NCBI GenBank assembly: GCA_951812745.1
Contig: OX638327.1
Location: 682,001 to 746,000, forward strand
Direction: 5' to 3'
Source: an uncultured Nitrospirales bacterium
Lineage (GTDB): Bacteria > Nitrospirota > Nitrospiria > Nitrospirales > UBA8639
Length of the DNA: 64,000 nucleotides
Numbering within the stretch: position 1 is the stretch's first letter; the number at the start of each line of letters is the position of its first letter. The notes beneath the pieces were generated by a model. It did not search any database, had not been told where the DNA came from, and saw only the letters and a list, made by a program, of their open reading frames with translations. Of this stretch, positions 54,579 through 64,000 are shown one piece after another. The translations under genes and the position numbers were made by a program.

Positions 54579-54655
54579 CGTAGCGTAATCCGACAGATGT
54601 GCGAATTGTCGGGGCATGGAATCGTCGGGTTACGCCTTCGGCTAACCCGACCTAC
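54565..54655. repeat. REP-like palindromic element, long copy overlapping a stop codon
   Basis: Same structure as the copy at 51529 (left arm GTAGGTCGGATTAGCGTAGC, right arm ending GCTAACCCGACCTAC). The TAG within GGTCGGATTAG terminates the FAD/Fe-S gene, so its last residues (RRSD) are repeat-encoded. Confidence 0.85.
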
Positions 54656-54701
54656 GGCCGTAGTCCGGGGCCGCCCGTCTTGCAGAAGGAGGATTTTCAC
54701 C

Positions 54702-54980
54702 ATGGTGACGATACGAGTGTTCGGACAGGTCCTGCTCCCTTGCGTGGACGAGCCGGAGATTCAATGTAAGATTTCCGCGCCGGTCAGTGTACGGGCGTTA
54801 TTGGAAGGAAACCCTGAATCCTTGGGCGGGTTGATGGAATTCCTGCGAAAGAGCGAATTGATGGTCACGATCAATCAAAAAGTCAGTACCATGGAATCGA
54901 TTGTCAACGACGGCGACGTGGTGAAATTTACGCACCAGTTCAACCCGGAACACGAAGGAGCCCTGTGGCATAATCCCTAA
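54702..54980 (+). CDS. MoaD/ThiS-like beta-grasp protein without a Gly-Gly end
   Basis: 92 residues from ATG 54702 with an AAGGAGG site. Strand order VTIRVFGQVLLPC, CKISAPVSVRALLEGNPE, ELMVTINQKVSTMESIVNDG and DVVKFTHQF resembles the ubiquitin-like beta-grasp of MoaD/ThiS, including the typical VND-GD-V turn. The protein ends EGALWHNP, lacking the Gly-Gly tail used for sulfur transfer. It may not act in sulfur transfer at all. It lies after the FAD/Fe-S gene. Confidence 0.6.
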   Translation: MVTIRVFGQVLLPCVDEPEIQCKISAPVSVRALLEGNPESLGGLMEFLRKSELMVTINQKVSTMESIVNDGDVVKFTHQFNPEHEGALWHNP

Positions 54981-54989
54981 CCTGACTTT

Positions 54990-55010
54990 CCTCTCCCTTG
55001 ATGGGAGAGG
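54990..55010. repeat. CTCTCCC hairpin repeat
   Basis: CCTCTCCC-TTGAT-GGGAGAGG forms a short hairpin 9 bases after the beta-grasp gene. Beyond it the gap to 55347 contains a fragment of the REP-like family (gactaacccaacctac) near 55059 and two weak reading frames (54998-55192, 55113-55304) without recognisable products; I see no convincing gene there. Confidence 0.45.
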
Positions 55011-55347
55011 ACAAAGGTGAGGGTGAGAAAACCAGCCCCTGCCCCCGCGGGTGCTGGACTAACCCAACCTACGATTCAACATTTGTAACCATGTTCATAA
55101 TCGCTCACCGAAGTGCTGTTTTACTGTCTGCAATCACCTCTAACCTGCTACCTCACATCTCTGATCGAGGATCGAACCCTACTCGTGCTTGATCTAATTG
55201 CCTTTATCACGGCATTATTTGACGTATTCCCCGGCCTAGTCGACGTCCAACACTATCCAGCGGCGAAGGTTCGAGAGACTGCTAATGGGATTTCACGGAT
55301 TTGATGGTTTGGGCCAAGGACTTCTGATTTCAACGAAATGACATACG

Positions 55348-58116
55348 ATGTCTCACGACGTTGAAACAGGCAAACCCATGCCGGCTTTTGAGGAATATAC
55401 GACCTACCCGACAAGACAGCCCTGGTATCCGCGCCACTCATCAGGATCAACGCAACCAACGATCAGTCTCGTCTTGGAGTTGCGCAACCGCTCGCGGCGG
55501 TTGAAGTCTCAGGCAACGGCTTTCCTGTTCTTGATCGTCGTCGCGCTAGTCGGTGGCATATTCGCTGTCGTTTGGTTGCCGAGGTTCGTGGCCGGAGAAG
55601 CAGGACAGATTGACCAGATCGTCGCAGTGTCTACACAAGTGGGGGTTCTGCAGGGAGAGAAGAAACGCTTAACGAAAGACTGGAATCAGCAACGGGATGA
55701 CGACATCCAACGGATCAGCGCTATTCTCCAAAGCGTCGCACCGCCTGATGGATACAGAAATGATCATCTCATGGCCGTGCATTTCGCAGATGACAAACAG
55801 ACCGGCTGGGCCGTTGGACGAGATGGGGTAATCCTCATCACGACCGATGGCGGCGCCAATTGGCGTAAACAGACAAGCGGTACATCGCAGGATCTCCGGG
55901 GCCTGCATATCGCAGATGACAAACAGACCGGCTGGAAGACCGGCTGGACCGTTGGGCAAGATGGGGTAATCCTCATCACGATCGATGGCGGCGCCAATTG
56001 GCGTGAACAGACAAGCGGTACATCGAAGGATCTCGTGGGCCTACATTTCGCAGATGACAAACAGACCGGCTGGACCGTTGGTTTCGATGGGGTAATCCTC
56101 ATCACGACCGATGGCGGCGCCAATTGGCGTGAACAGACAAGCGGTACATCGAAGGATCTCCTAGGCCTGCATATCGCAGATGACAAACAGACCGGCTGGG
56201 CCGTTGGGCAAGATGGGGTAATCCTCATCACGACCGATGGCGGCGCCAATTGGCGTGAACAGACAAGCGGTACATCGAAGGATCTCGTGGGCCTACATTT
56301 CGCAGATGACAAACAGACCGGCTGGACCGTTGGTTTCGATGGGGTAATCCTCATCACGACCGATGGCGGCGCCAATTGGCGTAAACAGACAAGCGGTACA
56401 TCGAAGGATCTCCTAGGCCTGCATATCGCAGATGACAAACAGACCGGCTGGGCCGTTGGGCAAGATGGGGTAATCCTCATCACGACCGATGGCGGCGCCA
56501 ATTGGCACGTACAGAAAACGGGGACATCGAAGCATCTCCGGGGCCTACATTTCGCAGATGACAAACAGACCGGCTGGACCGTTGGTTTCGATGGGGTAAT
56601 CCTCATCACGACCGATGGCGGCGCCAATTGGCGTGAACAGACAAGCGGTACATCGAAGGATCTCCTGGGCCTGCATATCGCAGATGACAAACAGACCGGC
56701 TGGGCCGTTGGGCAAGATGGGGTAATCCTCATCACGACCGATGGCGGCGCCAATTGGCACGTACAGAAAACGGGGACATCGAAGCATCTCATGGCCGTGC
56801 ATTTCGCTGCCGACAAACAGACCGGCTGGGCCGTTGGGCAAGATGGGGTAATCCTCATCACGACCGATGGCGGCGCCAATTGGCACGTACAGAAAACGGG
56901 GACATCGAAGCATCTCATGGCCGTGCATTTCGCTGCCGACAAACAGACCGGCTGGGCCGTTGGGCAAGATGGGGTAATCCTCATCACGACCGATGGCGGC
57001 GCCAATTGGCACGTACAGAAAACGGGGACATCGAAGCATCTCCGGGGCCTACATTTCGCAGATGACAAACAGACCGGCTGGACCGTTGGTTTCGATGGGG
57101 TAATCCTCATCACGACCGATGGCGGCGCCAATTGGCGTAAACAGACAAGCGGTACATCGAAGGATCTCCTAGGCCTGCATATCGCAGATGACAAACAGAC
57201 CGGCTGGGCCGTTGGTTTCGATGGGGTAATCCTCATCACGACCGATGGCGGCGCCAATTGGCACGTACAGAAAACGGGGACATCGAAGCATCTCATGGCC
57301 GTGCATTTCGCTGCCGACAAACAGACCGGCTGGGCCGTTGGTTTCGATGGGGTAATCCTCATCACGACCGATGGCGGCGCCAATTGGCGTAAACAGACAA
57401 GCGGTACATCGAAGGATCTCCTGGGCCTACATTTCGCAGATGACAAACAGACCGGCTGGGTTGTTGGGCAAGATGGGGTGGTACTGAAAATCCAGCTTCC
57501 CGATGTTCTTGAAGAACTCAGGAACCACAAAGATCCAGAGAAGTATATCAAGTCGTTGAATGAACTGGGGGAAAAACACAGAAATCCCAGTCTCCATACT
57601 TTGATTTCGCACGCCAACCAATTGAAGAAAGCGTTATCTAAGGCAGAGCAGGACCTCAAGGAAGCACAAGAGAATCTGAACACTCTACAATCGGTGAACA
57701 TTTATGGTGCGACCGTTGACTCCGCCCCGCCAAAAAGCTTCACCACTCGAAGCGATCAGGCCGGAAGCTTATCAACAAAAACCGCCCCAGAGGTTTCGGT
57801 CCAGATCCTGAAAAGCCGGGATGAGGCCGAGGCACGAAAAATCTTAACTGCAAATCTCACGCGGGTGGGGGTCATCGGGTTCTTCAGCTATTTCATCGCG
57901 CTCCTTGCCAATCTTTACCGCTACAAAGTGCGACTCGCCGTCTTCTACGACGGGAGGGCTGACGCGCTCAGCCTCGGCAAGCCGGACGTCACCAAGTTCG
58001 CCATGTTGGTCGACAAGTTCTCGCCTGACTCGATGCAGTTCGGCAAGCAGCCGGCCTCGTCGTTGGAGCACGCGACCACCGTCGCGGAGCGGTTCGCACG
58101 CATCTTCCGCAAATAA
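55348..58116 (+). CDS. Membrane protein with 14 near-identical Ycf48/WD-like propeller repeats
   Basis: 922 residues. A membrane helix near residues 57-77 (TAFLFLIVVALVGGIFAVVW) precedes a helical linker. Residues 140-712 hold 13 full 42-residue units and a partial 14th. A unit reads DLLGLHIADDKQTGWAVGQD then GVILITTDGGANWREQTSGT, the Ycf48/BNR beta-propeller blade (GWxVGxDG, TTDGGANW). Fourteen blades would give two seven-bladed propellers. A coiled coil follows (KALSKAEQDLKEAQENLNTL), then a second helix (VIGFFSYFIALLANLYRY) and about 65 cytoplasmic residues (YDGRADALSLGKPDVTKFAM). It neighbours a peptidase-hydrolase gene 309 bases downstream on the same strand. Function unknown; a sensor or scaffold is plausible. 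Confidence 0.85.
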   Translation: MSHDVETGKPMPAFEEYTTYPTRQPWYPRHSSGSTQPTISLVLELRNRSRRLKSQATAFLFLIVVALVGGIFAVVWLPRFVAGEAGQIDQIVAVSTQVGVLQGEKKRLTKDWNQQRDDDIQRISAILQSVAPPDGYRNDHLMAVHFADDKQTGWAVGRDGVILITTDGGANWRKQTSGTSQDLRGLHIADDKQTGWKTGWTVGQDGVILITIDGGANWREQTSGTSKDLVGLHFADDKQTGWTVGFDGVILITTDGGANWREQTSGTSKDLLGLHIADDKQTGWAVGQDGVILITTDGGANWREQTSGTSKDLVGLHFADDKQTGWTVGFDGVILITTDGGANWRKQTSGTSKDLLGLHIADDKQTGWAVGQDGVILITTDGGANWHVQKTGTSKHLRGLHFADDKQTGWTVGFDGVILITTDGGANWREQTSGTSKDLLGLHIADDKQTGWAVGQDGVILITTDGGANWHVQKTGTSKHLMAVHFAADKQTGWAVGQDGVILITTDGGANWHVQKTGTSKHLMAVHFAADKQTGWAVGQDGVILITTDGGANWHVQKTGTSKHLRGLHFADDKQTGWTVGFDGVILITTDGGANWRKQTSGTSKDLLGLHIADDKQTGWAVGFDGVILITTDGGANWHVQKTGTSKHLMAVHFAADKQTGWAVGFDGVILITTDGGANWRKQTSGTSKDLLGLHFADDKQTGWVVGQDGVVLKIQLPDVLEELRNHKDPEKYIKSLNELGEKHRNPSLHTLISHANQLKKALSKAEQDLKEAQENLNTLQSVNIYGATVDSAPPKSFTTRSDQAGSLSTKTAPEVSVQILKSRDEAEARKILTANLTRVGVIGFFSYFIALLANLYRYKVRLAVFYDGRADALSLGKPDVTKFAMLVDKFSPDSMQFGKQPASSLEHATTVAERFARIFRK
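55765..57486 (+). repeat. 126-bp tandem repeat array, 14 units
   Basis: Thirteen units of 126 bases and a partial last one; unit 2 has a 12-base in-frame insertion (a duplication of the GGCTGG-AAGACC part), and unit 14 starts at 57415 exactly as this spacing predicts. Variants occur as exchangeable blocks: DLLGLHIADD, DLVGLHFADD, HLRGLHFADD or HLMAVHFAAD at the start; AVGQ, TVGF or AVGF in the middle; REQTSG, RKQTSG or HVQKTG at the end. Near-identity at DNA level points to recent amplification or gene conversion. Confidence 0.95.
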
Positions 58117-58169
58117 GCGGTGGCAGGTTGTATCTGAGCCAAGGATAACCCGCCTTCATTCTTCCTATC

Positions 58170-58316
58170 GTGCGAGAGCCTTTCGTCGAGTGGAACTTCG
58201 AAGAACTGCCGGAAAGGCTTGGCGAGGCGGAGTTGCTCCCAGCACTCGATGTCTTTAGTATCCTGCCGCAGATTGCTGAATTCAAACTCGCGCTCGTGCC
58301 TGAAATACCCATCTAG
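58170..58316 (+). CDS. Small ORF (48 aa) between propeller and peptidase genes
   Basis: GTG 58170 to TAG 58314 encodes MREPFVEWNFEELPERLGEA, then LLPALDVFSILPQIAEFKLA and LVPEIPI. The residue mix is like a folded protein, unlike the alternate frames. There is no clear ribosome site and a stop lies in frame 27 bases upstream. It may be a genuine small gene or the remnant of a larger one. Confidence 0.3.
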   Translation: MREPFVEWNFEELPERLGEAELLPALDVFSILPQIAEFKLALVPEIPI

Positions 58317-58425
58317 CAAATTCGGATTGCCATTCGCGAGTTCTTAATACAGATGCCTGCGCGACGGGGGCGACGCGTTTATAATCAATTGAATGAAAAC
58401 AAGCGTTCGGAGGGAGGTCGCAGCA

Positions 58426-60264
58426 ATGAAAAACGTTGACAAAGTCTTGCCGAATGGGCGGGTGCTCAATGTCCGGCCGGATCCACCGGACATTCGCGAC
58501 AGAATGTATGAACCGGCACTCGTTTGGTTACGAGCAACTCTCGATCCGCCCGCTAACCTCACAATTCTAGACCAGGGCCAAGAGGGCGCGTGCACCGGCT
58601 TTGGTCTCGCCGCCACTATCAACTTTTTGCTAGACCGTCAGGGTCAGAGCAGCTTTCGTGTCAGTGCATGTATGCTCTACGAAATGGCCAAGCGTCACGA
58701 CGAATGGCCAGGTCAAGACTACGAAGGCTCGAGCTGTCGAGGTGCCATTCGCGGGTGGGTAAACATGGGCGTTTGTAGCGACAGCCTTTGGCCTTACAAC
58801 CCAGCGCGAACCGATGGGCGATTGACCATTGAGCGCGCTAAGAACGCCCGAAAGACGACGCTTGGTGCCTATTATCGGTTGCGCCCAAATATCACCGATT
58901 ACCACGCCGCATTAAATGAAGTAGGCGTGGTCTACGCGTCTGCGCGAGTCCATGACGGCTGGTATGACCCTAAAGGCCAACCAGCCGTCATTCGGCCACG
59001 GGCAAATTCCATCGGTGGTCACGCCTTCGCCATTGTCGGCTACAACGACAGTGGGTTTTGGGTACAGAATTCTTGGGGCCACAATTGGGGGCGGTACGGT
59101 ATCGCGCTTTGGCGCTACGAAGATTGGCTTGAAAACATCTCCGATGGCTGGGTCATGCGGCTTGCCCTGCCGGTGCCACAGATTTTCGGACTTAGCGCAA
59201 GATCTTCCCTTACCGGTCAGGACGCGGAATCGAGCGATCAAAGAAAGAAAAAGCCGCCGAAACGTGTCGAAATCGAAGGGCACTTTGTGCATTTCGACGA
59301 TGGCAGCTTGAAGTCACGGGGCAACTATTGGAGCAGCCATGACGACATCCAGCAGACCGCGGACCTCATCAAGAGCAATGATTACGAGCACCTCCTGATT
59401 TATGCCCATGGCGGACTGAACAGTCCAAAGGACTCGGCTGCCCGCATCCAGGCCCTCAAGAACGGCTTCATGAGGAACGGCATCTACCCGTTCCACATCA
59501 TGTACGACACTGGTCTAGTGGAAGAGCTGGGGGACGGCGTGCGGCGAGCGCTCGGGCTGTCGGAAGAGCGGGTCGGCGGATTCCTGGACTGGACCGACAA
59601 TATCATCGAAGACGCCGCGCGCAAGCTCATGACATCGATTTGGGAAGAAATGAAGCGCGATGCCAAGTTGCCCTTCGCCCACAAAAAAGCGGATGGCAGC
59701 CTGGTGATCCAGACCTTTGCTAAGAAACTGGCGAGCACCGGCAAATCGATTCATTTAGCCGGTCACAGCACGGGCGGCGTACTGATAGGGCACTTGCTCA
59801 ATGCACTAAACAGGCTTGATGTCTCCGTGAGCATCGACAGCCTGACACTTTTCGCGCCCGCCTGTAGGGTTGACTTCTTCGAACAGAACTATCAGCCTTA
59901 TTTGGGAGGACGAACCGGAAACGGGGTGCTTTTACCGCGCATGCTTGTCTATAACCTGACGGACGAGCTGGAACAGGACGACCATGTTGCCTTCGCCTAT
60001 CGCAAATCCCTACTCTACTTGGTGTCACGCGCGCTCGAGCGCGGCAAAGATCAGCCACTCCTCGGCATGGAGAAATACGCGAAAAAGATCGACTCTCACG
60101 ACAACTTAGAATTTATCTATTCCAAGGGGCGTGGACGGCGTAGTGCTAGTAAGACGCACGGCGGTTTCGACAATGATATTGCGACGATGAACGATTTGCT
60201 GAAGACGATACTCGGCAAAAGGTCATCGCGACCTTTCATCGAAGCTGAGATGGTTGGGTATTAG
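58426..60264 (+). CDS. Papain-like cysteine peptidase fused to an alpha/beta hydrolase
   Basis: 612 residues from ATG 58426 (GGAGGTCG site upstream; ATG 58393 is less likely). Residues 40-250 form a C1A peptidase: oxyanion Gln50 and Cys56 in LDQGQEGACTGFGLAATI, His199 in SIGGHAFAIVGYN, Asn215 in WVQNSWGHNWGRYGIALW. A charged linker (DQRKKKPPKRVEIEGHFVHF) leads to an alpha/beta hydrolase: HLLIYAHGGLNSPKD (oxyanion loop), nucleophile Ser448 in IHLAGHSTGGVLIGHLLNAL, probable acid in YNLTDELEQDD and His in SKTHGGFDND. Both active sites look complete. No signal peptide, so it should be cytoplasmic. Substrates unknown; pairing with the membrane propeller protein is inferred from position. Confidence 0.82.
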   Translation: MKNVDKVLPNGRVLNVRPDPPDIRDRMYEPALVWLRATLDPPANLTILDQGQEGACTGFGLAATINFLLDRQGQSSFRVSACMLYEMAKRHDEWPGQDYEGSSCRGAIRGWVNMGVCSDSLWPYNPARTDGRLTIERAKNARKTTLGAYYRLRPNITDYHAALNEVGVVYASARVHDGWYDPKGQPAVIRPRANSIGGHAFAIVGYNDSGFWVQNSWGHNWGRYGIALWRYEDWLENISDGWVMRLALPVPQIFGLSARSSLTGQDAESSDQRKKKPPKRVEIEGHFVHFDDGSLKSRGNYWSSHDDIQQTADLIKSNDYEHLLIYAHGGLNSPKDSAARIQALKNGFMRNGIYPFHIMYDTGLVEELGDGVRRALGLSEERVGGFLDWTDNIIEDAARKLMTSIWEEMKRDAKLPFAHKKADGSLVIQTFAKKLASTGKSIHLAGHSTGGVLIGHLLNALNRLDVSVSIDSLTLFAPACRVDFFEQNYQPYLGGRTGNGVLLPRMLVYNLTDELEQDDHVAFAYRKSLLYLVSRALERGKDQPLLGMEKYAKKIDSHDNLEFIYSKGRGRRSASKTHGGFDNDIATMNDLLKTILGKRSSRPFIEAEMVGY

Positions 60265-60436
60265 GACCCATCCCGAATCCGACTTTGACAGCTCGCAGAG
60301 GCTGAAGCGCAGTAAAGACGACTCCCGCCTCTTCAAGTCAGATCAGCTGCGTTTCCGACATTGGGACCAGGATATCCGGGTCGTCGTTCCGGACGCTATT
60401 TGCCCTGGTGCTGACGGCGCGCTGCTCACTAGATAA
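60254..60436 (+). CDS. Small ORF overlapping the hydrolase stop
   Basis: A TTG at 60254 opens 60 residues (GIRTHPESDFDSSQRLKRSK, DDSRLFKSDQLRFRHWDQD, VVVPDAICPGADGALLTR) overlapping the previous gene by 11 bases in another frame. There is no ribosome site. It could be a remnant of a longer 3' end that a frameshift has separated from the hydrolase, or noise. Listed because of its protein-like composition and position. Confidence 0.25.
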   Translation: MGIRTHPESDFDSSQRLKRSKDDSRLFKSDQLRFRHWDQDIRVVVPDAICPGADGALLTR

Positions 60437-60502
60437 CGCAAATAACCTAAACTAACGACTGGTACTAAAACCGGGGGCAGGCTTTCCCACCCTCACCTTT
60501 AT

Positions 60503-60561
60503 CCTCTCCCGTCAAGGGAGAGGAAAGTTGGGGTCTTTGTCCTCTCCGATCAAGGGAGAGG
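60503..60561. repeat. Two CTCTCC hairpins between the accessory patch and accA
   Basis: CCTCTCCC-GTCAA-GGGAGAGG (60503-60523) and CCTCTCCGATCAAGGGAGAGG (60541-60561) are two copies of the short hairpin, 17 bases apart. They lie just past the stop of accA (minus strand), where they could end transcription. Confidence 0.5.
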
Positions 60562-60574
60562 ATGATCGGGGCTA

Positions 60575-61528
60575 TCAAGTGTCGGCCAGTGCGGCCATTT
60601 GGCGGAATTTTTCGTGCCGGTTTGCCAGGAGTTGTTGCGTGGACAAGGCCAGAAGCTGGCCCAGTTGAGTGTGGAGGGTTTGGGCAACGGCTTGACTGAC
60701 GCTTTCGACGTCGCGATGCGCGCCACCGAGTGGTTCGGGAACGATTTCGTCGGCAATGCCTAATTTAAGCAGTTCCGCGCCGGTCATTTTCAAGGCCGCG
60801 GCCGCGGCTTGCGTTTTGGTTGCATCTTCCCAAAGGATGGCCGCGCACCCTTCCGGGGAAATGACCGAGTAAATGGAGTGTTCCAGCATCACGATCCGGT
60901 CGGCCACCCCTAACCCCAGCGCTCCGCCGCTTCCTCCTTCTCCGGTAATGATGGCGACGATCGGCACCTTGAGCCGGGACATCGCGAACAGGTTTCTGGC
61001 AATGGCCCTGGCTTGGCCGCGTTCCTCGGCTCCCACGCCGGGATAGGCGCCGGGTGTATCGATAAACGTGACGACCGGGCGTTTGAATTTTTCGGCCAGA
61101 TGCATCAGTCGCAAGGCTTTTCGATAGCCTTCAGGATTGGGCATTCCGAAATTTCGTTTCACCCGCTCCTTGAAGTTTTGTCCTTTTGCATGACCGATGA
61201 CGCAAAGGGACCGGCCCCGGAACGTGGCAAATCCACCGATGACGGCCTTGTCGTCTCCGAAGGTTCGGTCGCCGTGCAGTTCGAGAAAGTCCTCGCATGT
61301 GTGCTTCATATAGTCCAGGATCGACGGGCGTTGAGGATGACGGGCGATTTGCGTTTGCTGCCAGGGGGTCAGGTTGCCGAAGATGTCCTGCTCCGTCTTG
61401 GCTAACCGGGCCTGGAGAATGCGAATCAGCCGCGGGACGGCCTTTCTCTCGGAACCCGATTTATTCAGCTTTTCCAGCCGTTCTTCGAGTTCTTTCAGCG
61501 GCTTTTCAAATTCCAAAAAATCACGCAT
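60575..61528 (-). CDS. accA: Acetyl-CoA carboxylase carboxyltransferase, alpha subunit
   Basis: 317 residues. MRDFLEFEKPLKELEERLEK is the N-terminal helix. PQRPSILDYMKHTCEDFLEL, GDDKAVIGGFATFRGRSLCV, TFIDTPGAYPGVGAEERGQA and AIITGEGGSGGALGLGVADR mark the crotonase-like core that transfers CO2 from carboxybiotin to acetyl-CoA, first step of fatty-acid synthesis. It follows dnaE by 21 bases on the same strand and may share its transcript. Confidence 0.96.
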   Translation of the reverse strand: MRDFLEFEKPLKELEERLEKLNKSGSERKAVPRLIRILQARLAKTEQDIFGNLTPWQQTQIARHPQRPSILDYMKHTCEDFLELHGDRTFGDDKAVIGGFATFRGRSLCVIGHAKGQNFKERVKRNFGMPNPEGYRKALRLMHLAEKFKRPVVTFIDTPGAYPGVGAEERGQARAIARNLFAMSRLKVPIVAIITGEGGSGGALGLGVADRIVMLEHSIYSVISPEGCAAILWEDATKTQAAAAALKMTGAELLKLGIADEIVPEPLGGAHRDVESVSQAVAQTLHTQLGQLLALSTQQLLANRHEKFRQMAALADT

Positions 61529-61549
61529 GGCGGATTCGTCCTGGACGCG

Positions 61550-64000
61550 TCAGTAAAACGTCACGGTCTCTTTTCCGAGAATTTGCTCCACTTCATAGAC
61601 CAGGTCCGAACTCGGCAAGACGCTGACATTCGGCAATGGTGCACTTTCCGCTTGAACGTGCGAATCCAGATGAAAGTGAAAGGCGACCGAGGCCTGACCC
61701 GGGTGGCGGTGTAACACTTCCTTCAGTTTGGGCAGCTTGCCCCACGTGTCCGTCGTTTCCGCGAGGCGTACCACGACCTGTTTCACGGTTCTGGTTTGCA
61801 AGTCGTGCAGGGGCTCCAATTTGGTGGCCTTGAGACGGGCGCCGGAATCCATGTGATCCACCGTGCCCATGGCCTGGATGACGGTATCCGTATTCAGAAA
61901 CTCCGAACAGTTTTGAAAGAGTTCGGGAAACACGATGATTTCCACCAAGCCCTGCAAGTCTTCCAATTGGACGTAGGCCATCCGGTTCCCTTTTTTGGTG
62001 GTGGTGACTTTGATGCTGCCAATCACGCCGCAGATTTTGACTTCCCGGCCTTCGTGCGCCTCGTGGAGGGTGGTCGTGGTATGCGTCGACAGCAGGCGGA
62101 TGGCTTCGGCGTGTTGGGTCAACGGATGGGCGGTGATATAGAATCCGGTGAGTTCCCGTTCAAATTGGAGAATTTGGGCCTGTTGCCATTCGTCGATCGC
62201 GGGCAGCGGTCGAGTCAAGGCAGGCGAGTTCGAGTCATCCGCTTCGACGGCCTCGAATAAGGACGTCTGTCCCAAGGCGCGCTCCTTTTGAATAGCGTTG
62301 GCTTCATCCAGCGTTTGTTCCATCACAGCCATCAATTGAGCCCGTTTGGTCACCGTGGAGTCAAATGCGCCGACCTTGATCAAGCCCTCGATCACGCGCT
62401 TGTTGACCTTGTGCATGTCGATCCGGCAACAGAAATCCAAAAAGGACACGAAGGGCCCCTCGGCTTCCCTACGCGCGATGATGGATTCAATGGCACTGCC
62501 GCCGACGTTTTTAATGGCCGCCAGCCCGAATCGAATCCCTCCTTCCACGATGGTAAAGTTTTTCTGGCTTTCATTCGCGTCCGGCGGGAGGATGGGAATC
62601 CCGCGTTCGCGGCATTCGGTGAAATAGCCCACCATCTTGTCCGTATTCCCCATTTCACTCGTGAGGAGCGCGGCCATGAATTCCGTGGGATGATGCGCCT
62701 TCAGGTAAGCCGTTTGGAACGTCACCAGGGCATAGGCCGCCGAATGGGATTTGTTGAATCCGTACCCGGCAAAGTAGGCCATTTGGTCGAAGATCTTTTC
62801 CGCTTTCTTGTCCGTGAACCCGTTGGCCTTGGCCCCGTCGAGAAACAATTCTTTTTGCTTGGCCATCTCTTCGGGTTTTTTCTTCCCCATGGCCCGGCGA
62901 AGCAGATCGGCTTGCCCCAAACTGAACCCGGCCATGCGATTGGCAATGGCCATGACCTGTTCCTGATAGACGATCACCCCGTAGGTTTCCTTGAGAATGG
63001 GTTCCAGCTCCGGAGGGTCGTACGCAATTTTCAAGGGATCGCGTTTGCGTTTGATGAAGTCGTCCACCATGCCGCTTTCCAGGGGACCCGGCCGGTAGAG
63101 GGCGAGGATCGCGATGAGATCTTCGAAGCATTCCGGTTTGATGCGGACCAATAAATTTCGCATGCCCGAACTTTCCAGTTGAAAGATCCCGGAGGTTTTG
63201 CCGGAAGCCAGGAGGGCATAAGTTTCTGCATCACTCAGGGGAAGCCGTTCAATATCGAGTCGTTCTTCCGGAGTCCGGTTCTGGTTCACCATGGCGACGG
63301 CATGATGAATCATGGTCAGGGTTTTCAGCCCCAGAAAATCGAATTTCACCAGCCCCACTTTTTCAATATCCGTCATCGAATATTGCGTGACGATTTCGTT
63401 GTTGGCCGTTTTGTACAACGGCACGTGATCCATCAGGGGCTTCTGTGAAATCACCACCCCCGCCGCGTGCGTGGAGGCGTGTCGCGCCAGGCCTTCGAGG
63501 GATTGGGCCGTCGTCATGAGTTCCTTCATCCGCGTGTCGCTGTCGACCAACTCTTGCAGGCGCGGCTCTTGTGTCAAGGCCTCTTTCAAGGTGATGTTGA
63601 GTTGCGTAGGCACGAGTTTGGCGACGCGGTCCACTTCGGCGTAGGGAATATCCATTACGCGCCCAACGTCCCGGACCGCGGCTTTCGCGCCCAGCGTCCC
63701 GAACGTGATGATCTGGCACACGTGATCTTCGCCGTATTTCTCGATCACGTAATTGATGACTTCTCCCCGGCGGTCCATGCAGAAATCCATGTCGATGTCC
63801 GGCATGCTCACGCGTTCGGGATTGAGGAACCGCTCGAAGAGCAGGTTGTACGCGAGAGGATCCAAGTCGGTAATGGAGAGGGCATAGGCAATCAAACTCC
63901 CGGCTGCCGATCCCCGGCCGGGTCCCACCGGAATGCCGCGCGACCGGGCAAATTTGATGATGTCCCACACCACCAGGAAATAGCCGGCATAGCCCATCTG
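61550..64000 (-). CDS. dnaE: DNA polymerase III alpha subunit, C-terminal part (cut by window edge)
   Basis: At least 815 residues; the frame is open to the window end, so the N-terminal part (PHP domain and the first part of the polymerase) lies outside. Seen: GIPVGPGRGSAAGSLIAYAL, the catalytic Asp pair in SMPDIDMDFCMDRRGEVINY, GTLGAKAAVRDVGRVM, and VIVYQEQVMAIANRMAGFSL. The helix-hairpin-helix region lies near residue 500, and the OB fold reads VKICGVIGSIKVTTTKKGNR then AYVQLEDLQGLVEIIVFPEL. It is the replicative polymerase of the main fork. Confidence 0.95.
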   Translation of the reverse strand, partial: QMGYAGYFLVVWDIIKFARSRGIPVGPGRGSAAGSLIAYALSITDLDPLAYNLLFERFLNPERVSMPDIDMDFCMDRRGEVINYVIEKYGEDHVCQIITFGTLGAKAAVRDVGRVMDIPYAEVDRVAKLVPTQLNITLKEALTQEPRLQELVDSDTRMKELMTTAQSLEGLARHASTHAAGVVISQKPLMDHVPLYKTANNEIVTQYSMTDIEKVGLVKFDFLGLKTLTMIHHAVAMVNQNRTPEERLDIERLPLSDAETYALLASGKTSGIFQLESSGMRNLLVRIKPECFEDLIAILALYRPGPLESGMVDDFIKRKRDPLKIAYDPPELEPILKETYGVIVYQEQVMAIANRMAGFSLGQADLLRRAMGKKKPEEMAKQKELFLDGAKANGFTDKKAEKIFDQMAYFAGYGFNKSHSAAYALVTFQTAYLKAHHPTEFMAALLTSEMGNTDKMVGYFTECRERGIPILPPDANESQKNFTIVEGGIRFGLAAIKNVGGSAIESIIARREAEGPFVSFLDFCCRIDMHKVNKRVIEGLIKVGAFDSTVTKRAQLMAVMEQTLDEANAIQKERALGQTSLFEAVEADDSNSPALTRPLPAIDEWQQAQILQFERELTGFYITAHPLTQHAEAIRLLSTHTTTTLHEAHEGREVKICGVIGSIKVTTTKKGNRMAYVQLEDLQGLVEIIVFPELFQNCSEFLNTDTVIQAMGTVDHMDSGARLKATKLEPLHDLQTRTVKQVVVRLAETTDTWGKLPKLKEVLHRHPGQASVAFHFHLDSHVQAESAPLPNVSVLPSSDLVYEVEQILGKETVTFY

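What the first reader, a model, noticed from the sequence alone, without database searches (positions are those of the whole stretch)
55348..60436. Candidate undescribed module: membrane double-propeller protein plus peptidase-hydrolase fusion
A membrane protein with 14 Ycf48/WD-like blades and a cytoplasmic C-terminal tail sits next to a cytoplasmic protein that fuses a complete papain-like peptidase (Cys56, His199, Asn215) to a complete alpha/beta hydrolase (Ser448). Two small ORFs flank the second gene. The patch is bounded by intergenic repeats, and nothing housekeeping-like lies inside it. A sensor or scaffold with a two-headed hydrolytic effector is a layout expected of conflict, defence or signalling systems. 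That functional reading is inference; sequence shows only the domains, their intact catalytic residues and the shared strand.
Basis: partly seen in the sequence, partly recalled or inferred. Interest (0 to 1): 0.8.

Follow-up and report, generated by a model that had tools for sequence, protein, structure and literature searches.

The report
Imported hydrolase and propeller genes, hotspot
Two unusual genes, one for a two-headed digestive enzyme and one for a membrane protein made of near-identical repeats, sit together in a DNA insert at a genome site where sister species carry anti-phage systems, but the two genes are not found paired anywhere else, so they are better read as neighbouring cargo than as one conserved machine.

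Summary
The genes are as described. P0001 (55348-58116) is a membrane protein with 13 Asp-box blades plus a degenerate 14th. P0002 (true start 58426) fuses a xylellain-type papain peptidase to an alpha/beta hydrolase; both active sites are invariant in 51 of 51 aligned homologues. P0002 belongs to a large family (at least 576 loci, several phyla) and its tree position indicates horizontal transfer; in other lineages it sits beside signal-less peptidoglycan hydrolases. The defence context gains indirect support: the 5.5-kb insert occupies a site that is empty in two sister genomes but holds a type II restriction-modification pair, a decayed Hma system and a PADLOC candidate in three others. Neither protein convincingly matches a known defence family, and the genome has no T6SS sheath gene. 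Best reading: two horizontally acquired accessory genes in a defence-rich hotspot, P0002 a stored cytoplasmic lytic enzyme and P0001 a re-amplified envelope receptor. Whether they work together is unproven.

The parts
54597..54980 (+). ThiS-like gene, left flank of the hotspot (core genome)
   Evidence: Weak Pfam ThiS match, below cut-off; syntenic in sister genomes
54985..55039 (.). REP-like palindromic repeat, left border of the insert; inverted copy at 60474-60528 (91% over 55 bp)
55348..58116 (+). P0001, 922-aa two-TM protein with a highly repetitive Asp-box propeller
55513..55578 (+). P0001 first transmembrane helix (aa ~56-77)
   Evidence: hydropathy
55765..57483 (+). 14 blade units (13 with Asp-box, last without)
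   Evidence: four-stranded units in a low-confidence model
57850..58113 (+). P0001 second transmembrane helix and cytoplasmic tail, conserved in G046
58426..60264 (+). P0002, C1 peptidase / alpha-beta hydrolase fusion (612 aa from the conserved start)
58426..59175 (+). papain-like C1 domain with N-terminal segment (Q50, C56, H199, N215)
   Evidence: 3ois Z 28.9
59263..60261 (+). alpha/beta hydrolase domain (HGG 328-330, S448, E516/D519, H578)
   Evidence: weak Pfam matches; conservation; model
60474..60562 (.). REP-like palindromes, right border of the insert
60575..61528 (-). accA, right flank of the hotspot (core genome); dnaE follows
   Evidence: syntenic in sister genomes; gene name from own reading of the sequence

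Best explanation
The segment 54985-60500 is accessory DNA inserted at a defence-rich hotspot between a ThiS-like gene and accA. Shown: P0002 is a horizontally acquired member of a widespread family of cytoplasmic (signal-less) fusions of a xylellain-type C1 peptidase and an alpha/beta hydrolase with both active sites intact; P0001 is a rare two-TM protein with a freshly amplified Asp-box propeller; the two are not a conserved pair. Inferred: P0002 is a stored lytic effector that cuts protein and ester or lipid bonds when released or activated by cell damage, infection or lysis; in other lineages signal-less peptidoglycan hydrolases are its operon partners. Inferred: P0001 presents a renewable binding surface on the periplasmic side and signals through its conserved tail. 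A P0001-to-P0002 link is possible but unproven.
For: Insert absent from G006 and G008, other cargo elsewhere including type II RM, Hma and a PADLOC candidate. P0002 tree position among other phyla. All catalytic residues invariant in 51 homologues. Xylellain fold Z 28.9. Recurrent lytic partners: GH108 in 8 loci, GH19-like, M15, M10/astacin, trypsin, Amidase_2, CHAP. G046 homologue keeps TM helices and tail but has different blades.
Against: No enzymatic or phage phenotype is known. Many P0002 loci have ordinary neighbours. The GH108 link is confined to one clade, not the window's. No PG hydrolase lies beside P0002 in the window. Hotspot sample is small and only two of the other occupants are established defence systems.
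Confidence: 0.45

Rival explanations
1. A true two-gene defence system: P0001 senses an envelope or phage signal in the periplasm and its cytoplasmic tail switches on P0002, which kills or stalls the cell by proteolysis and lipid hydrolysis (abortive infection).
For: Same strand, adjacent, in one insert at a site with defence cargo in sister genomes; membrane plus peptidase layouts exist in described conflict systems.
Against: Pair found nowhere else; P0001-like gene in G046 without P0002; 309-bp gap; no convincing PADLOC match (weak repeat-region hit for P0001, none for P0002).
Confidence: 0.2
2. Release by lysis: P0002 is a leaderless digestive or anti-competitor enzyme exported by endolysin-based secretion (T10SS-like) or by lysis of a subpopulation; P0001 is unrelated cargo.
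For: Signal-less P0002 with signal-less GH108 directly downstream in 8 loci and other PG hydrolases in further loci; T10SS uses such enzymes (PMC10109510, PMC10847048, abstracts only).
Against: No endolysin or holin recognised next to P0002 in the window; not searched genome-wide.
Confidence: 0.19
3. Ordinary housekeeping protein turnover or lipid catabolism enzyme with an unrelated repeat protein beside it.
For: Variable ordinary neighbours in most loci; syntenic in five Alteromonas genomes.
Against: Patchy distribution (19 of 98 relatives), transfer between phyla, recurrent lytic partners.
Confidence: 0.16

Closest known systems
Xylellain (Xylella fastidiosa C1A peptidase, PDB 3ois)
   Same: Sequence (E 2e-16) and predicted fold (Z 28.9, 239 residues, rmsd 2.4) of the peptidase half, including its N-terminal segment
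   Different: Xylellain has no alpha/beta hydrolase half in the solved chain
Conflict systems of Kaur et al. 2020 (PMC7159879)
   Same: Peptidase linked with alpha/beta hydrolase; a membrane protein plus peptidase two-gene layout is described there
   Different: Those use caspase- or trypsin-superfamily peptidases, here papain-like; no NTPase or effector-associated domain was recognised in the window pair
Highly repetitive Asp-box propellers (Pereira and Lupas 2022, PMC9218822)
   Same: Near-identical consecutive Asp-box blades, recent amplification
   Different: Two transmembrane anchors, coiled coils and a conserved cytoplasmic tail
YCF48 photosystem II assembly factor
   Same: Asp-box blades; Pfam PSII_BNR E 6e-59, PDB 8am5 E 9e-19
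   Different: NCBIfam equivalog score 233, cut-off 326; 14 blades instead of 7, two TM helices; a separate YCF48-like gene exists in the genome

Membership tests
Papain family C1A | Gln-Cys-His-Asn active site | tested here: met
   Q50 C56 H199 N215 invariant in 51/51
Papain family C1A | Papain fold | tested here: met
   Predicted model, pLDDT 88; 3ois Z 28.9
Alpha/beta hydrolase superfamily | Nucleophile elbow GxSxG, oxyanion HGG, acid and His | tested here: met
   GHSTGG S448, HGG 328-330, E516/D519, H578 invariant; which acid acts is not known
Alpha/beta hydrolase superfamily | Assignment to a named family | tested here: inconclusive
   Pfam matches below cut-off; PDB profile search best E 0.03
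YCF48 assembly factor (equivalog) | Score above curated cut-off | tested here: not met
   233 bits against 326
Highly repetitive beta-propeller | Median blade identity over 60% | tested here: met
   Blade units of 42 aa, 68-100% identical in DNA
Type VI secretion effector | T6SS present in the genome | tested here: not met
   No VipB/TssC sheath gene in G000; 5 of 24 P0002 genomes have one
Known anti-phage system (PADLOC) | Match to a PADLOC model | tested here: not met
   P0002 none; P0001 only a weak repeat-region match, PDC-S05 E 8e-5, no stretch passing on its own
Two-gene membrane-peptidase conflict system (Kaur et al. system 4) | Caspase-superfamily (or cyclase) domain in the second gene | tested here: not met
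   Papain-like peptidase instead
Conserved P0001-P0002 module | Pair adjacent in other genomes | tested here: not met
   None of about 90 loci; G046 has the P0001-like gene only
Anti-phage activity | Protection in a plaque assay | not testable with these tools
   Needs the bench

The most novel reading that the evidence does not exclude
Signal-less C1-peptidase/alpha-beta-hydrolase fusions are a widespread, undescribed class of two-headed lytic effectors that team with endolysin-type enzymes or, here, with a membrane receptor whose propeller is repeatedly re-amplified, making an envelope-sensing anti-phage or self-lysis system.
Probability: 0.18. Interest if true: 0.72.

Novelty: new variant of a known kind. 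Interest (0 to 1): 0.42.

Why it matters
A large transferred enzyme family, named only 'C1 family peptidase' in most of the annotated plasmid records checked, turns out to carry a second, equally conserved hydrolase and recurrent lytic partners, and one copy sits in a defence-rich hotspot of this genus. That makes a role in lysis or phage defence directly testable. P0001 gives two cases in which anchors and tail are kept while the propeller blades are replaced, a pattern expected of a receptor under pressure to change.

Tried and rejected
T6SS cargo: no sheath gene in the genome. Conserved module: not adjacent elsewhere. Photosystem assembly factor: below cut-off. Phage or plasmid gene: the phage collection shows only weak C1-domain matches; the P0001 tail has no plasmid or viral relative. 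Vertical descent within the family: not supported by tree position (quick method). Wider search for the P0001 tail: 1 of 396 phylum genomes (own only), none in 369 and 297 genomes of two other groups; the latter two lack a positive control. 14-ring versus two 7-rings: the single-sequence model has pLDDT 54 and cannot decide. Promoter scan of the patch: no + strand site, fewer than in shuffles. PADLOC on ten linked partners: only weak trypsin-domain matches in one. PADLOC on other genes near the hotspot: weak PDC-M51A in G010.

Full report
Observation. P0001 (55348-58116) and P0002 (58393-60264, conserved start 58426) are real and on the + strand. P0001 has 13 Asp-box blades plus a degenerate 14th, in 126-bp units that are 68-100% identical; units 9 and 10 are identical. 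It has two hydrophobic helices; basic residues just before the first and just after the second suggest a periplasmic array and cytoplasmic ends (inference). P0002 has a complete papain domain and a complete hydrolase motif set; all eleven key residues are invariant in 51 homologues. The AF2 model has mean pLDDT 88.1 and pTM 0.86, and the first 250 residues match xylellain 3ois at Z 28.9. The hydrolase domain could not be assigned to a named family.

Is it a module? No conservation supports it. P0002 homologues occur in 19 of 98 genomes searched (own included) but in none of 13 other members of the genus. A genome-contig scan gives 576 relatives, the closest at about 61% identity in Kiloniellales and Nitrospinae. 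In about 90 loci no neighbour resembles P0001. The only other P0001-like protein is in G046: a frameshifted gene with TM1, Asp-box blades, TM2 and a 36%-identical tail, near ABC transporter-like genes, in a genome (83% complete) with no P0002 found. Its blades are unlike those of P0001 but again contain repeated units, so anchors and tail are kept while blades are renewed (inference).

History. The tree puts the window P0002 in a 15-row set of Pseudomonadota, Thermodesulfobacteriota, Verrucomicrobiota and Nitrospinota (support 98), away from the G016/G023 copies of the same family. This indicates horizontal acquisition. In G006 the ThiS-like gene and accA are separated by only about 85 bp holding one degenerate repeat; G008 is also empty. 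In the window the same gap holds 5.5 kb between REP-like palindromes, which are dispersed (20 sites). Sister genomes hold other cargo at the site: type II methyltransferase (E 2e-123) and restriction enzyme (E 4e-42) in G002; pieces of HmaA, HmaB and HmaC in several frames in G007, apparently decayed; a PDC-M36A candidate (E 3e-21) plus an alpha/beta hydrolase in G004; a RAYT-like gene (own reading) in G009; only small ORFs in G005 and G013. So the patch lies in an insertion hotspot that often carries defence genes. The sample is small.

Partners elsewhere. A GH108 muramidase follows P0002 directly in 8 loci and occurs at no other position among 979 ORFs (Fisher p 1.3e-9, not corrected for kinship; all 8 belong to one clade). 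Other unrelated peptidoglycan or proteolytic enzymes recur next to it or near it: a GH19-like gene with a PG-binding domain, M15, M10/astacin and trypsin, Amidase_2 and CHAP with PG-binding domains; in Paracoccus a trypsin domain is fused to the match. The GH108 proteins and nearly all P0002 homologues lack a signal-peptide-like hydrophobic start. Many other loci have ordinary neighbours. A lytic or lysis-linked role is the common thread. Two readings remain: infection- or damage-triggered self-destruction, and release by endolysin-type secretion (T10SS, PMC10109510, PMC10847048, abstracts). Present data do not separate them. T6SS is excluded for this genome as far as the sheath gene tells.

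Relation to the literature. Kaur et al. (PMC7159879) describe peptidase plus alpha/beta-hydrolase pairs and a membrane-protein plus peptidase two-gene layout in conflict systems, but with caspase- or trypsin-type peptidases. Pereira and Lupas (PMC9218822) describe recent blade amplification, including Asp-box propellers. I found no paper in the held library that describes this fusion family or P0001; the library lacks most subscription journals.

Verdict. Observation confirmed. The domain readings are right, apart from 'WD-like'. The module claim is not supported, and the defence context is supported indirectly by location.

Noticed in passing
60575-64000; L038:7407-14025; L039:3691-9214: Distant P0002-like genes lie beside dnaE(-accA) in three separate Nitrospirales settings, although the proteins come from distant branches; dnaE/accA may be a recurrent insertion site.
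   Followed up: partly
L147:2878-10613: Apparently decayed Hma (helicase-methylase-ATPase) defence system in G007 at the site that holds the insert in the window.
   Followed up: partly
L148:2708-5227: PDC-M36A candidate defence protein next to an alpha/beta hydrolase in G004 at the same hotspot.
   Followed up: no
54989, 60502, 60540 and 17 other genome sites: Dispersed REP-like palindrome TCCTCTCCC..GGGAGAGGA; RAYT-like genes (own reading) occur in G009 and G012 beside accA.
   Followed up: partly
L067, L086, L087, L101, L102, L104, L107, L115: Signal-less GH108 muramidase directly downstream of the P0002 homologue, a possible lysis or secretion cassette.
   Followed up: partly
L158:5267-6910: G063 (same order) has a different, probably exported, repetitive Asp-box propeller protein, about 51% identical in the blades, without the P0001 tail.
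   Followed up: no
L033:5239-7652: P0001-like gene of G046 is split by a frameshift; decay or assembly error not resolved.
   Followed up: no
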